Below, piece after piece: positions 34,320-62,525 of a stretch of DNA of 64,000 nucleotides (positions are counted from its first letter, which is position 1; every line of letters begins with the position of its first letter). Source of the DNA: Hasllibacter sp. MH4015 (GTDB taxonomy: Bacteria > Pseudomonadota > Alphaproteobacteria > Rhodobacterales > Rhodobacteraceae); assembly GCF_020177575.1 (NCBI RefSeq), contig NZ_JAHTBK010000001.1:3240001-3304000 (forward strand). Direction: 5' to 3'. The notes beneath the pieces were generated by a model. That model was not told the origin of the DNA and searched no databases. It was given only the letters and a program-made list of their open reading frames with translations. Both the position numbers and the translations under genes were made by a program.

Positions 34320-34778
34320 TTATTCCGATGCTTCCTCTTCCTCCGGGCCGCCAAGCGACACGATATAGGCGTAAAGGTTCAACGCATCCTCTTCGGAGCG
34401 GACGCGGAAGCTCATCGCGCCGCGCAGGCTGTCGTCGCCCGCCGTTTCGCGAATCCAGCCGGTCGGATCCTGGACGTAGCCAACGAACGCGGCCTCATCC
34501 CATTCCATGCCGTCTTCCATCAGCGCCATGAGGCCGTTGGAATAGCGGAAATCCTCGACCGAGCCGATCACGCGACCGTGGATGCCCCACAGGTTGGGGC
34601 CGGTCCGCGCATTGCGGCCCGCCAGCGTCTCACCTTCTGCATCGACCACGACGTGGCAGGAGATGCACTGGCGGAACGCGCGTTCGCCCGCCTCCGCATC
34701 ACCGGTTGCGTGACCATCGGCGAAAGCCGGGGCCGCAAGGAGCGATGCCGTGGTGGCGAGAATGGAAAATCTCTTCAT
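34320..34778 (-). CDS. cycA: Class I cytochrome c (cytochrome c2 type), acidic and lysine-free
   Basis: A 152-residue periplasmic monohaem cytochrome, probably carrying electrons from the bc1 complex to the reaction-centre side. Signal peptide ends near FAFA-type AFA-D (residue 20). The haem site is CISCH (38-42) and the likely axial methionine is M122 in GAMSFRV. The mature part has no lysine at all and ends PEEEEASE, unlike lysine-rich Rhodobacter cytochrome c2. It has its own PpsR operator, although it follows hemA. GGGAG precedes the ATG at 34778. Confidence 0.88.
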   Translation of the reverse strand: MKRFSILATTASLLAAPAFADGHATGDAEAGERAFRQCISCHVVVDAEGETLAGRNARTGPNLWGIHGRVIGSVEDFRYSNGLMALMEDGMEWDEAAFVGYVQDPTGWIRETAGDDSLRGAMSFRVRSEEDALNLYAYIVSLGGPEEEEASE

Positions 34779-56871: not shown

Positions 56872-58794
56872 TCAGGCCCGCGATTTTCCCTCGAACGCCC
56901 CCATTGTGACACCCAGCGCGTCCAGCGCCTGCGCCGCGATGTCCTGCGCGGTCAGACCGGCATCGGCATACATGTCGGCGGGGCTCGCCTGGTCAATGAA
57001 ACGGTCGGGCAGGTGCATCGTGCGCACGGCGCAGCGTCCGTCCAGTTGCCCGCTTGCGGCCAGATGGTGGAGGACCATGCCCCCGAAACCCAGCATCGCG
57101 CCTTGCTCTACCGTTATCATCGCGCTGTGCGTGGCCATCAACCGGTCCACCAATGCGGTGTCGAGCGGTTTGGCGAAGCGCGCATCGGCGATGGTCACGG
57201 ACAACCCCCGCGCCTCCAGCTCCGCCGCGGCGTCCTTGGCTTCTTCCAGATGCGCGCCGAAGGACAGGATCGCGACATCGCTGCCCTCCTGAATAATGCG
57301 GCCCTTGCCGATGGGCAGGACATCTCCCGTTTCAGGCAGCGCCACGCCCGTCCCCTCCCCGCGCGGATAGCGGAGCGCGATGGGGCCGGTATCATGGGCA
57401 GCGGCGGTGGCGAGCATATGGACAAGTTCCGCCTCGTCGGCGCAGGCCATGACCGTCATGTTGGGCAGGGCCGCGAGGTATCCGATATCGAACGCACCGG
57501 CATGGGTCGGGCCATCGGCCCCCACCAAGCCCGCGCGGTCGATCATGAAGCGCACGGGCAGGTTTTGCAGGGCCACATCGTGAACCACCTGGTCATAGCC
57601 CCGTTGCAGGAAACTGGAATAGATCGCGCAGAACGGCTTCAGGCCGCCCGCCGCCATGCCCGCGGAAAACGTCACCGCATGTTGCTCGGCGATGCCCACA
57701 TCGAAGACACGCGCGGGCATTGCCTTTTGCATCGTGGCGATGCCGGTGCCGCCGGGCATGGCGGCCGTCACGCCGACGATGCGATTATCCGTCTCTGCCA
57801 TGCGCAACAGGGTCTTGCCGAAAACCCCGGTATAGCTTGGCGCGTTGGGCGCTGATTTCTTCTGGACGCCTGTGGCGACATCGAATTTCGCAACGCCGTG
57901 ATAACAATCGTCCGACAGCTCGGCAGGGCTGTAACCTTTGCCCTTCACCGTGACCGCGTGGATCAGAACCGGGCCGTCACCTCGGGCCTTCGCGGCGCGC
58001 AGGGTGGTCAGCAATTCGCCCATATCGTGCCCGTCGACCGGCCCGATATAGGTGAAGCCCAGATGCTCGAACAACGTGGCCGAGGGCTGATGTCCCGTCA
58101 CCAATTCCCGCGCCCGTTCCGCGCCTTGGCGGATCGGTTCCGGCAGGTGCTGCGCCACACCATCGGCGATGTCTTTGAGCGTCGCCAGCGGTGAATTCTC
58201 CGACAACCCGGTCAGATACCGGCTCATGGCACCCACCGGCGGAGCGATCGACATCTCGTTGTCGTTCAAGATCACGAACAGACGCTTGCCCAACGCGCCG
58301 GCATTGTTCAGCGCCTCATAGGCCATGCCCGCACTGATCGAGCCGTCGCCGATCACCGCGATGCCGTCCCCCGTCGCTTCCCCCAGGCCGCTGGCCATCG
58401 CAAAACCCAGCGCGGCGGAGATGGAGGTGGAGGAGTGTGCCGCGCCGAACGGATCGTATTCGGATTCCGCGCGTTTGGTGAATCCGCTCAAGCCCCCTTT
58501 CTGGCGCAGGGTTCGGATTCGGTCTCGTCGCCCGGTCAGGATCTTGTGGGGGTAGCATTGGTGGCCCACGTCCCAGACCAGCTTGTCATAGGGCGTATTG
58601 AACACTGCGTGGATCGCAACCGACAGTTCCACCACACCAAGCGAAGACCCAAGATGACCGCCGGTCTGCGATACGGCGTCAATAACCTCCGCCCGCAATT
58701 CTTGGGCGCATTGGGCAAGATCCGCGTCGCTCATCCGGCGCAGGTCGGACGGGTATGTCACACGGTCCAGAACGGGTGTTTCGGGGGTATCCAT
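56872..58794 (-). CDS. dxs: 1-deoxy-D-xylulose-5-phosphate synthase
   Basis: TPP enzyme that condenses pyruvate with glyceraldehyde 3-phosphate, the first step of the MEP isoprenoid pathway. The 640-residue protein has [17 protein letters not shown], the TPP/Mg motif [18 protein letters not shown] with NDNEMSI, the pyrimidine domain with [15 protein letters not shown] and the transketolase C-terminal domain. It lies 122 bases downstream of pufC in the same direction, as in Rhodobacter capsulatus. Confidence 0.96.
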
Positions 58795-58916
58795 TGGTCA
58801 TTCTCCGTCACTTTCGCGCCGGATAGAGCCTTCCGGCAGCATATTGCCCAAGCAGGTGTCTGACGTCTGCCGGGTGGGCCGGGCGGCGAGGCGATTGCCC
58901 CGCCACCCGCCTTGGA

Positions 58917-60617
58917 TCATTCGACGGCGGCTTCGATCAACTCAAGGCACGCTTGCGTCATGTCGACACCGGCATCGGCAGCCGCCTGGCAGATCTCCAG
59001 GGTGACTGCGATATCCTCTGCCCCTTCGACAACTTCCGCCATGGCGTCGGGATCTTCGGCCTCGATAGCCTCTTCCATCGCGGATTCAACCTCTTCCTCG
59101 GCGGCGTCTTCCAGCTCGCCCATATCGGTGGTCTCTTCCTCGGCGCCCGTGTCGGCGGCATCGGTATCGGCGGCCTCTTCCTCGGTCGCCGCGGCGTCCG
59201 CATCGGCTGCTGCATCCTCCGTCTCGGCTGCCGCGTCCGCGTCGGTTTCATCCGCATCGACGGCAGTGTCATCCGCCGCCGCTTCCTCGGTTGCTTCAGC
59301 ATCCGCTTCGACCCCGGCATCCGCGTCGGCAGCACCGTCGTCCGCCGCGTCAGCCTCCGCATCGGTGGCATCGTCTTCCGTCGCCGCTTCCTCAGCTTCG
59401 GCACCGTCGTCGGATTCCGGGGCCGCTGCTTCTGGATCGGTATCCTCGGCATCTGCCGTTTCAGGCTCGGGATCAGCGACTGCGACCTGCCATGCCGAGT
59501 AATCGGGCGGGCCGTCGATCACGTTCAGCTCGGGCCAGTTCGCGATCACGTTGAGGCCTTGCAACGGCTGCTGGTAGCCTTGGTGACAGGTGCGGCAGGC
59601 CGCAAGCGGCGCGTCGCCATAGACCGGGCCAAGACGCTCCTCAGGGTACACGTCTTCCAGCGGAAGCAGGTATTCCGTGATCATCTCCTGAACCATCAGG
59701 ATACCAAGCGATGCGGTCCCCCATTGCGGCGTGTTCTGACCGCCATCGTAGAACGCGCGGGAATTGTGGCAGAAGACACAGTTCACCCCCAGCGAGTTCG
59801 AGATGTAATTCATGAAGCCGTAGGTCCGCTCCGTGTGCTGGATCAATGGATCGCCCGGCTGCTGCTGCACCCGGCTGTCAAGGTCGTGGACCGCGATCTG
59901 GTTGTATCCGCCATCCTCCGCCTCGAGCAGGTAGTGCTCCAGGTAATCGGACGGCAGGGAGGTGAAGTTGGACGTCATGGTGGCGCGGTTCTGATTGGCG
60001 CTCCACCCTTCCGCGTTCGCGTTCACCGGGCTGATCCGGTACCAGATATTGTTGGGGACCGGCTGACCGCGGTGACAGGTATAGCAGGTGACGCCAACTT
60101 CATAATTGGCGTTCACATGGGCATCCCAGTTCACGTTGATGTTGCGGGTCATCAGCAACATGTTCCGCGCGACAACCTTGGTATAGGTATCGTCGTCGGC
60201 ATATTCGCCATCCGCCGCATTCGCGTGGCAATAGGCGCAGCCCTCGTCCGGCGCGACCCAGAGGGTCATCGCGTTCATCAGGCGGTTGAAGTTAGCGTCG
60301 GTCAGATCGCCCAGAACCTGCACGTTTTCGTAGATGTCACCGGCAAGTGCCTCTCCCTCCTCGGGGGGAAAGGGCTCATCGGTGTAGAAATCCGCGACGG
60401 TGGGATCACCGGCCGACAGGTCTCCGACGAATTCCTGAACATGCATCCCCGTGCCACGGGGGCCGGTTTGCATCGCCGCGGTGGCAAAGGGTTGCCCCCA
60501 GGCGATGATCATCACCGCGACGAAAATCGCCCCGCCGACGGCCCCGACAGCGATGGCCGGGCCGTAGATGTTCGTGGGATTGTCGGTATTCCATGTGTCG
60601 AACCACTTGGGAAACAT
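58917..60617 (-). CDS. pufC: Reaction-centre tetraheme cytochrome c with long acidic C-terminal tail
   Basis: Four-haem cytochrome bound to the periplasmic face of the reaction centre; re-reduces the special pair. The 566-residue protein has an N-terminal membrane anchor (near 19-40; no lipoprotein cysteine), then CxxCH sites at 127-131, 178-182, 280-284 and 341-345. The normal fold ends about residue 375 (PDYSAWQVAV). From 381 to 566 it continues as an Ala/Asp/Glu/Thr tail: 74 acidic of 186 residues, no Lys or Arg, ending in a short helical part with C543 and C557. Typical PufC lacks this. Gap to pufM is three bases, leaving no room for pufX. Confidence 0.95.
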   Translation of the reverse strand: MFPKWFDTWNTDNPTNIYGPAIAVGAVGGAIFVAVMIIAWGQPFATAAMQTGPRGTGMHVQEFVGDLSAGDPTVADFYTDEPFPPEEGEALAGDIYENVQVLGDLTDANFNRLMNAMTLWVAPDEGCAYCHANAADGEYADDDTYTKVVARNMLLMTRNINVNWDAHVNANYEVGVTCYTCHRGQPVPNNIWYRISPVNANAEGWSANQNRATMTSNFTSLPSDYLEHYLLEAEDGGYNQIAVHDLDSRVQQQPGDPLIQHTERTYGFMNYISNSLGVNCVFCHNSRAFYDGGQNTPQWGTASLGILMVQEMITEYLLPLEDVYPEERLGPVYGDAPLAACRTCHQGYQQPLQGLNVIANWPELNVIDGPPDYSAWQVAVADPEPETADAEDTDPEAAAPESDDGAEAEEAATEDDATDAEADAADDGAADADAGVEADAEATEEAAADDTAVDADETDADAAAETEDAAADADAAATEEEAADTDAADTGAEEETTDMGELEDAAEEEVESAMEEAIEAEDPDAMAEVVEGAEDIAVTLEICQAAADAGVDMTQACLELIEAAVE

Positions 60618-60620
60618 TTC

Positions 60621-61622
60621 TTATTCCTCCCCACGGGTGACGCCACCGAATGTCTCGTACGATCCGTAGGCTTCATAGCCATAGGGTTCGAGGTATTCGG
60701 GTGCGAAGTGATGTTCCTGGGCCCAGATAAACCAGTTATCCACGACCGTGCCGGTCAGAAGGATCCCGATCCCGCCGGTGATGGGGGTCAGGACCGCGAA
60801 CCACCAGGCCCAGCGGTGAATGCCTTCCATCGTGGCGTTGAAGCCCATGGTCCAGCGCCAGAACAAGCCCGCCCGTTCGGACGCGGTGCCGCGGTCGATG
60901 ATCTGCTCCAGCTCCCGGTCGCCGCCGTAGCGGGAGACGGCCAGAATGGTTGCGCCGTGCATGGCGAAGAGCAGGACCGAGCCGTAGAGGAACACGATGC
61001 TCAGGCAGTGGAACGGGTTGTAGTAGAGGTTGCCGTACCGGATCGAGAACGCGGTGGTCCAATCAAGGTGCGGGAAGATGCCGTAGGGCACGGCCTCAGA
61101 CCAGCTGCCCATCAGGACCGGCCGAAATAGGCCCAGCACAAGGAACAGCCAGATCGCGGCCAAAAAGGCCCAGGCGATGTGTTTGCCCATCTGGTGCTCG
61201 ACCGCCAGCATGTAGGTCCTGAGCCACCAGCTCATCACCGAGATCAGCAGGAAGAAGCTGGATATCACGTACCAGCCGCCGTCATTGAGTGGCGGGATCG
61301 ACAGACCATGCTCTGGCCCCGGCGGCTCAAGCGCCAGCCAGAACAATTGCCGGATGAATTCCGGGATCGACCAATCGACCTGGCTGAGCATGTTGAGGCC
61401 CACGATATTGAACCACAACAGCCCTGTTGCAAGGCTGACCAATCCGGCCCAGCCAAGGTAGATCGGGCCAAGCTGTGCATTGCCGAACCAGCCAAGCAGG
61501 GTCGAAAACGACGCCTTCTTGGTCCGCTCGCGTGACAGCGTTCCCTGGTCGTCCATGCCGATCTCGGGCTCACCCTGGACCTGCACTTGCGTGAAGATGT
61601 TCTGATATTCGAGATAGGCCAT
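60621..61622 (-). CDS. pufM: Photosynthetic reaction centre M subunit
   Basis: Core subunit with five transmembrane helices that binds the special pair, QA and the non-haem iron with PufL. The 333-residue protein starts [20 protein letters not shown]. It shows [40 protein letters not shown] (pigment His) and [20 protein letters not shown] (iron ligand region). The extended C terminus ([17 protein letters not shown] onward) is common when a PufC subunit is present. Confidence 0.97.
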
Positions 61623-61625
61623 GGC

Positions 61626-62525
61626 TTATTCCCCTCCCACAAGCACGGGAGCGTTGGCGCCGATGGTAGCCGCACCAGTCGTGTCGTAGACCACGCCCTG
61701 ATCCGGCCAGATCGGCAGATCGAGCCACCAGTTCCACCATTCCGGCCAACCGGACGTCCAGACGGGCCCGGAGATGATGATGCAGACCGCACTCCAGAAT
61801 ACGGCTGCAAGCGCCAGCAGCATGCCGACCCGGTGGATGCCCAGCGTGCCGACCGAATAGCCGATGAAATCCCGGAAGAACGTGTCCTCGTGATCCGGCG
61901 TCTTCATGATCGTCCCCTTCTCGGGGTTCGCCGCGGACAGGATCAGGCCACCGTGCAACGCCAATGCGAAAGTGGTGGTGAAGAACAACGTCACCGCCAG
62001 CATATGCGCCGGGTTGTAGTGGAAGTGCAGGTAGGCATAGCCCACGTTGCTGACCCAATCGAGGTGGCTGAATATGCCGTAGGGAAAGCCGTGGCCCCAT
62101 GCGCCCATCAGAAGCGGGCGGAACACGACCAGCGTGACATAGGCCAGGATCGCGAAGCCAAAGGCGAAGGGCACGTGATACCCCATCCCCAGCTTGCGCG
62201 CGATCTCCACCTCGCGCAGCGCCCAACTGACGAAGGCGCCGATCGCGCAGAATGTGATGATTTGCCAAAGCCCGCCTTCCAGCAACGGGGCGAAGCCAAG
62301 GCCGTAGCTCAAGTCGGGCGGCGCGATGTTGATCAACCACGGGTTGAACGTGCCTTGCATGGCCGCCCCCCAGAAGATCAGGATCGTCCCCAACAAGGCG
62401 AAAAACGCTGTCGTGACGCCGAAGAAGCCGACATAGAACGGCCCCACCCAGAAGTCGAACAGATCACCGCCAACCAGCGTCCCTCCGCGGACGCGATATT
62501 TCTTTTCGAAGCTCAGCAAAGCCAT
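61626..62525 (-). CDS. pufL: Photosynthetic reaction centre L subunit
   Basis: Partner of PufM in the core. The 299-residue protein starts [20 protein letters not shown] and shows [40 protein letters not shown] and [20 protein letters not shown] (His ligands to pigment and iron). It runs about 17 residues past the usual end, with the tail [20 protein letters not shown]. The gap to pufM is three bases, and 150 bases separate it from pufA with a hairpin. Confidence 0.97.

What the first reader, a model, noticed from the sequence alone, without database searches (positions are those of the whole stretch)
58917..59477. PufC carries a 186-residue acidic low-complexity tail ending in a small cysteine-containing helical piece
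After the fourth haem site and a normal end (about residue 375), the frame continues to residue 566. By direct count, residues 381-566 have 74 Asp/Glu, no Lys or Arg, and mostly Ala and Thr otherwise. The last roughly 37 residues are less repetitive, predicted helical, and hold two cysteines (C543, C557), like a tiny domain on a flexible polyanionic arm. The known role of PufC is to pass electrons from soluble donors to the special pair. An arm at this site might fish for a donor, bind cations, space neighbouring complexes, or dock to another envelope protein. I know of no described PufC of this form.
Basis: partly seen in the sequence, partly recalled or inferred. Interest (0 to 1): 0.8.

Follow-up and report, generated by a model that had tools for sequence, protein, structure and literature searches.

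The report
Reaction-centre cytochrome with long acidic tail
In one light-using bacterium, the cytochrome that feeds electrons to the photosynthetic reaction centre ends in an unusually long, purely negatively charged floppy tail with a small, probably helical end piece; close relatives have shorter versions or none, so it looks like a variable add-on rather than an essential new part.

Summary
PufC (window 58917-60617, minus) has a normal tetrahaem core, then 186 residues with 74 Asp/Glu, no Lys/Arg, and cysteines 543 and 557. It is not a frameshift: the first part of the tail is homologous to shorter tails in two congeners (0 of 500 shuffles each), and the stop lies just before a hairpin present after pufC in all 8 phototrophic genomes of the genus; the genus is Roseicyclus by named relatives. 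In those 8, tails are 0, 0, 0, 0, 16, 33, 45 and 186 residues, differing even between sister species. The tail has two parts: a linker nearly free of hydrophobic residues (381-498) and a probably helical 'cap' (499-566) without a convincing relative. Acidic tails recur on PufC of other Rhodobacteraceae and on two PDB chains. Both candidate donors, cytochrome c2 and a membrane-anchored c, are themselves acidic, also in tail-less congeners, which weakens 'fishing for a donor'. Best reading: a dispensable, length-variable polyanionic bristle, extended here by a new cap of unknown partner. New variant of a known kind.

The parts
58917..60617 (-). pufC, reaction-centre tetrahaem cytochrome, 566 aa
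   Evidence: NF040706 E 3.5e-125, PF02276 E 1.2e-128, four CxxCH
59478..60617 (-). PufC core, residues 1-380: N-terminal membrane helix (hydropathy maximum at residues 21-39) and haem domain; net charge -31
   Evidence: 85-89% identical to PufC of the 7 congeners that have it, over the matched length
59124..59477 (-). polyanionic linker, residues 381-498: 51 D/E, 43 A, 13 T, no K/R, 2 hydrophobic residues; on the disordered side of the charge-hydropathy line
   Evidence: first part homologous to tails of G009 and G011
58920..59123 (-). cap, residues 499-566: acidic, probably helical, no convincing relative
   Evidence: searches
58947..58991 (-). C543 (58989-58991) to C557 (58947-58949), each 7 residues from Gly550; possible disulfide staple of a helical hairpin
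   Evidence: positions; pairing is inference
58833..58911 (-). two hairpins between pufC stop and dxs; they mark the same gene end in all 8 congeners with pufC
   Evidence: 90 nt after the stop fold better than shuffles, z -2.9 to -4.7 in 8 of 8
60621..62525 (-). pufL (61626-62525) and pufM (60621-61622), upstream
   Evidence: TIGR01157 and TIGR01115 above cut-off
56872..58794 (-). dxs, downstream
   Evidence: TIGR00204 above cut-off
34323..34778 (-). cycA-like gene, closest in the PDB to Rhodobacter sphaeroides cytochrome c2; candidate donor; mature net charge -16, no Lys
   Evidence: NCBIfam NF043008 only below its cut-off (61.2 vs 240 bits)

Best explanation
PufC here carries a periplasmic, intrinsically disordered polyanionic C-terminal bristle. 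An acidic tail of some 35-45 residues was probably present in an ancestor of the phototrophic Roseicyclus species; it was lost or cut in several and enlarged to about 118 residues in this one, where it also gained a 68-residue, probably helical cap. What is kept is the negative charge and the absence of Lys/Arg, not the length or sequence. The arm most likely works as an electrostatic and entropic brush that keeps the exposed face of the reaction-centre cytochrome soluble and clear of the anionic membrane and of neighbours, while electron transfer goes through the unchanged core. The cap, perhaps stapled by a C543-C557 disulfide, most simply shields the end of the arm from C-terminal proteases. 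Shown: anatomy, homology of the first part, presence and absence within the genus, acidic donors in tailed and tail-less species alike. Inferred: ancestral state, disorder, helices, disulfide, brush function, shielding by the cap.
For: Tail lengths in the 8 phototrophic genus members are 0 (four), 16, 33, 45, 186; sisters G009/G010 differ 45 vs 16 and sisters G011/G004 33 vs 0, both pairs with 100/100 support. The tail start is alike in this species, G009 and G011 (0 of 500 shuffles each). No K/R in the 4 genus tails or in those of G143 and G286, whose likeness to this tail does not clearly exceed composition (84 and 23 of 500 shuffles), so acidity looks convergent; in the family-level set 8 of 80 PufC have 20 or more extra residues and 7 of these 8 have no K/R there, four of them congeners. 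Codon choice in the tail is mixed. The core stretch is at net -26 to -31 in all 8. The linker lies far on the disordered side.
Against: No direct measurement of disorder, selection or protein integrity. Only one genome bears the long form, so selection on the extra residues cannot be tested. Of 21 of 107 distinct PufC with 20 or more extra residues, only 10 are at net -5 or lower and 3 are net positive, so PufC tails need not be acidic; one family member (L080) has 3 K/R in its tail. The short tail of G010 is not distinguishable from composition (172 of 500 shuffles). The ancestral-tail reading rests on a tree whose deep genus branches are weak (bootstrap 49-78%). A cap with two cysteines is more than a brush needs.
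Confidence: 0.42

Rival explanations
1. Weakly constrained, essentially functionless elongation: the exposed C-terminus tolerates insertion, and acidic composition is only what export and solubility allow.
For: Length is unstable between sister species and the tail is absent in 4 of 8 phototrophic congeners. Tail-less congeners have cores and donors of similar charge. Internal DNA repeats are faintly above codon shuffles for the whole tail (2 of 200) and the linker (8 of 200), not the cap (83 of 200).
Against: Zero K/R over 186 residues and in the other genus tails; two stretches of the cap with above-chance helical moment.
Confidence: 0.25
2. Docking arm: the cap is a binding module that holds a periplasmic partner (cytochrome bc1, the anchored cytochrome c, peptidoglycan or another envelope protein) near the reaction centre, the linker being a tether.
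For: Two-part anatomy with a hydrophobic-containing, cysteine-bearing end piece. [quoted passage not shown]
Against: The cap was found convincingly in one genome only; no known homologue and no partner can be named.
Confidence: 0.18
3. Donor fishing: the polyanion attracts a soluble donor with a basic face and raises its local concentration at the haems.
For: The D. shibae paper says that the acidic surface of its PufC may facilitate donor binding (PMC12079452, section 2.2 read). The c2-like protein keeps Arg at some positions where R. sphaeroides c2 has Lys (alignment), so a local basic patch may remain.
Against: Mature CycA is net -16 with no Lys here and -12 to -19 in the 11 of 13 genus genomes read; the anchored cytochrome is acidic in the 11 of 13 read (haem part -5 to -9, linker -10 to -13); no HiPIP match in 13 of 13. 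Over the 8 phototrophs neither donor's charge follows tail length (Spearman -0.46, p 0.25 and 0.32, p 0.44); the first would go the wrong way for attraction. A further small secreted cytochrome (L126) is net -10. The donor list may be incomplete: the PF00034 scan of the own genome (6 matches) missed CycA.
Confidence: 0.1
4. Cation buffer: the arm binds Ca2+, Mg2+ or other cations and so tunes stability of the complex.
For: Charge density; the abstract of PMC12079452 states high stability of the D. shibae complex with Mg2+ or Ca2+.
Against: Nothing here tests it; 4 of 8 congeners lack the tail.
Confidence: 0.05

Closest known systems
Acidic C-terminal tails on PDB PufC chains 7vrj_C (405 aa) and 8wdu_C (383 aa) (Allochromatium tepidum and A. 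vinosum: species recalled)
   Same: Ala/Glu/Pro-rich low-complexity acidic extension after the fourth haem site (alignments)
   Different: About 70 and 50 residues by my count, Pro-rich, few Asp, no cysteine seen in the shown part
Short acidic PufC tails in congeners G009, G010, G011 and in other Rhodobacteraceae (G143, G286)
   Same: No K/R, D/E/A-rich, same position; first part homologous in G009 and G011
   Different: About 16-65 residues, no cap, no cysteine
PufC with 207-residue tail in G1120 (L178), same class, other family
   Same: Very long low-complexity C-terminal tail
   Different: Pro/Gly/Ser-rich with 9 K/R, net -23, no cysteine
PufC with C-terminal OmpA-type domain, G996 (L167), same phylum, other class
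   Same: End module on a linker after PufC
   Different: Known domain family, short Ala/Pro linker, not acidic
Acidic N-terminal domain of Paracoccus denitrificans cytochrome c1 (recalled; searches found no paper)
   Same: Long Ala/Glu-rich acidic arm on a membrane cytochrome that exchanges electrons with another c-type cytochrome (recalled)
   Different: Another protein, another end; recalled to be unnecessary for electron transfer to its native partner
Protein-O of Dinoroseobacter shibae RC-LH1
   Same: Reaction-centre-associated protein with flexible loop and small helical end domain (PMC12079452, section 2.3)
   Different: Separate subunit; the paper relates its end domain to the C-termini of NuoE and others; our cap was not compared with it directly (not among the listed PDB matches)

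Membership tests
PufC (NF040706 / PF02276) | Profile match above curated cut-off | tested here: met
   417.6 bits vs 150; 429.3 vs 22.4
PufC (NF040706 / PF02276) | Four CxxCH haem sites | tested here: met
   127, 178, 280, 341
PufC (NF040706 / PF02276) | Next to pufL and pufM | tested here: met
   pufL, pufM upstream, dxs downstream, same strand
PufC (NF040706 / PF02276) | N-terminal membrane anchor | tested here: met
   Kyte-Doolittle maximum 2.58 at residues 21-39; hydropathy only
PufC (NF040706 / PF02276) | Ends shortly after the fourth haem site (usual, not defining) | tested here: not met
   Median 6 residues beyond position 28 after the last haem Cys in 107 distinct PufC, 198 here; 21 of 107 have 20 or more
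Acidic-tailed PufC | Acidic low-complexity C-terminal extension without K/R | tested here: met
Acidic-tailed PufC | Homologous tail | tested here: inconclusive
   Met for G009 and G011 (0 of 500 shuffles); not distinguishable from composition for G010, G143, G286 (172, 84, 23 of 500); PDB chains not tested by shuffling
Known small domains | Profile or PDB match of the cap | tested here: not met
   Pfam best E 0.02 below cut-off, NCBIfam none, PHROGs best E 0.38, PDB 7 matches, all designed proteins by name, best E 0.007
Protein-O-type C-terminal domain | Sequence relation of the cap to that domain | tested here: inconclusive
   Not among the PDB matches; the deposited chain may lack it, and no direct comparison was made

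The most novel reading that the evidence does not exclude
The last 68 residues are a newly arisen, disulfide-stapled helical module on a ~118-residue polyanionic tether, which ties the reaction centre to a specific periplasmic or envelope partner: a new docking device on a photosynthetic reaction centre, born within one genus.
Probability: 0.12. Interest if true: 0.72.

Novelty: new variant of a known kind. Interest (0 to 1): 0.42.

Why it matters
PufC is a textbook electron-transfer subunit. A genus in which its tail runs from nothing to 186 residues, on cores 85-89% alike and with acidic donors throughout, is a natural experiment on what a charged arm does at a reaction centre, and the tails are simple to delete or swap. 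It also warns that PufC C-termini evolve fast and can carry whole domains (the OmpA-type fusion).

Tried and rejected
Frameshift or fused neighbour gene: rejected (in-frame homologous tails; gene end before the conserved hairpin). The pufC-dxs gap is only 107-139 nt in the 8; I did not list ORFs under 80 aa there. Cap from another gene: only the self match in the own genome at E up to 10; in 13 genus genomes 4 have a match at E up to 10, self included, the best other at E 0.027 (G003, 36% over 44 aa), taken as chance and not followed; in 394 family genomes 90 have a match at E up to 1, self included, the best other at E 0.006. Of the 14 other loci fetched there I compared all 14 and saw alignments of 8: scores 11-17 bits in unlike frames, judged chance without a family scan. 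No match among 72,556 plasmid records (low-complexity filter on). A weak DNA match of cap nt 61-89 to the end of the G009 tail (86% over 29 nt, E 3.5e-4) and the G010 tail (E 0.004) may mean that the old tail end sits inside the cap; composition could explain it, so it is not used. Recent tandem duplication: faint only. Tail length against core charge over 81 sequences (80 of the family and L013 of another): Spearman -0.12, p 0.27, no link. Second hairpin: the stem slid by +1 scored as high or higher than the named one (0.286 vs 0.235), since registers differ between species, so its covariation is only suggestive.

Rows left out: PufC fragments of G221 (two pieces) and G175 were not fetched, so 72 of the 74 family genomes with a match were read; G1075 (below cut-off) gave no frame. 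The 107 distinct PufC are closed frames with at least 3 CxxCH from all samples together (genus, family, class, phylum, named contigs), merged by core. CycA charge was printed for 11 of 13 genomes and the anchored cytochrome for 11 of 13 (script motif missed the rest, or no locus).

Literature: of the ten searches, no listed title or shown abstract start concerned a PufC C-terminal tail; searches listed nothing; most listed papers were not opened, PMC8452559 among them. Seen: PMC12079452 (abstract and passages, sections 2.2 and 2.3), PMC10214105, PMC12654162, PMC7889895 (passages). Supplements were not available.

Full report
Observation. The frame 58917-60617 (-) is pufC: NCBIfam PufC and Pfam CytoC_RC match well above cut-off, with four CxxCH sites, pufL and pufM upstream and dxs downstream. 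Residues 381-566 hold 74 D/E, no K/R, and C543 and C557, as reported. The tail has two parts. Residues 381-498 hold 51 D/E, 43 A, 13 T and only 2 of 118 hydrophobic residues and lie far on the disordered side of the charge-hydropathy line. Residues 499-566 hold 20 of 68 hydrophobic residues; as a whole they lie just on the disordered side, 524-566 on the folded side. Of 8 chosen stretches, helical moment stands above shuffles for 552-566 (1.5%) and 499-521 (4%), not for 524-548 (25%). The cap's 7 PDB sequence matches at E up to 10 are designed proteins by name, best E 0.007, which says little more than that it looks helical. No structure could be predicted.

Is it one gene? The genome is in two contigs. 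Named relatives are uncultured Roseicyclus (L081-L084 have the contig lengths of G009, G010, G007 and G005), so the genus is taken as Roseicyclus; a fifth contig of that label (L088) is only 66% identical in PufC, so such labels are loose. Of 13 genus genomes, 8 have PufC. Their tails beyond ...DYSAW and a few residues are 0 (G007, G005, G001, G004), about 16 (G010), 33 (G011), 45 (G009) and 186 residues. The first part of our tail aligns with those of G011 and G009 with scores never reached in 500 shuffles; those of G010, G143 and G286 are reached by 172, 84 and 23 of 500. The stop codon is followed within ten bases by a hairpin in all 8; the 90 nt after the stop fold better than shuffles in 8 of 8 (z -2.9 to -4.7, at most 1 of 200 shuffles as good), and dxs begins 107-139 nt on. 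So the tail grew inside the gene, before an unchanged gene end; a frameshift or fused gene is excluded.

Evolution. On a tree of pufM-pufC DNA with the tail left out, G009+G010 and G011+G004 are sister pairs with full support; tail lengths within them are 45/16 and 33/0. The deeper order is weakly supported. Since alike tail starts occur in G000, G011 and G009, an ancestral tail of some 35-45 residues with later losses and one big gain is the simplest story (inference). Codon use is mixed and DNA repeats faint (2, 8 and 83 of 200 codon shuffles reach the score of the whole tail, linker and cap), so the gain is not very fresh.

How unusual? I read PufC from 72 of 74 matching family genomes (394 searched), 18 of 18 matching class genomes (385 searched) and 19 of 20 matching genomes of a phylum sample (398 searched). 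Of 107 distinct PufC, 21 have 20 or more residues beyond the usual end; 10 of these are net -5 or lower and 3 net positive. Ours is second in length (L178 has 207), by far the most acidic, and the only one of 107 with cysteine in the tail. PDB chains 7vrj_C and 8wdu_C carry Ala/Glu/Pro acidic tails. So acidic PufC tails are a recurrent kind; this is an extreme variant with a new end piece.

Cap. No convincing relative turned up in the own genome, 13 genus or 394 family genomes, plasmids, Pfam, NCBIfam or PHROGs; the weak matches are told under Tried and rejected. C543 and C557 each sit seven residues from Gly550, so two antiparallel helices could be stapled by a disulfide in the periplasm (inference).

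Function. Candidate donors: the window's CycA (34323-34778) is closest in the PDB to Rhodobacter sphaeroides cytochrome c2 (E 4.5e-36; that label of 1cxa/1cxc is recalled). It has no lysine and net -16; in the 11 genus genomes read, -12 to -19. The membrane-anchored cytochrome is acidic too in the 11 read. No HiPIP matches in 13 of 13. Over the 8 phototrophs neither donor's charge follows tail length; the tendency for CycA (Spearman -0.46, p 0.25) is towards more negative with longer tails. The list of donors may be incomplete, since the PF00034 scan missed CycA. Some Arg replace the Lys of the R. sphaeroides protein, so a local basic patch may remain, and the D. shibae authors suggest that PufC acidity may help donor binding (PMC12079452, section 2.2). 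On balance donor fishing is possible but not favoured. PufC is called an optional subunit in a review (PMC12654162, passages). Charge kept while length and sequence drift fits a brush; presence in only some sister species argues against an essential role. The cap is the part that could hide something new. Precedents show that reaction-centre proteins can carry end modules: an OmpA-type domain on PufC of G996 and protein-O.

Verdict. Real, unusual, new variant of a known kind; mechanism uncertain.

Noticed in passing
window 58833-58911 (minus); L001-L008, also L043, L058, L088, L177: Between pufC and dxs all 8 phototrophic congeners have hairpins (90 nt, z -2.9 to -4.7); a TCAGAC motif is invariant in the 8 and sits in a loop whose stem varies in most of them. 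By eye, L043, L058, L088 and L177 have terminator-like stems with the same motif. Three Rfam matches, all far below their gathering scores. Possibly a 3'UTR element of the puf operon.
   Followed up: partly
L167 (G996): PufC with a C-terminal OmpA-type domain (PF00691 E 2.7e-12) after an Ala/Pro linker: a reaction-centre cytochrome that may bind peptidoglycan.
   Followed up: partly
L178 (G1120): PufC with a 207-residue Pro/Gly/Ser/Glu-rich tail, net -23.
   Followed up: no
window 34323-34778 (minus): Cytochrome c2-like protein without a single lysine, mature net charge -16; net -12 to -19 in the 11 of 13 genus genomes read.
   Followed up: partly
L043, L055, L057, L058, L060, L062, L064, L066-L068, L070-L075, L077, L079, L088, L177: These 20 PufC frames show only three CxxCH sites in the scan, like the tri-haem PufC described for Dinoroseobacter shibae.
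   Followed up: no
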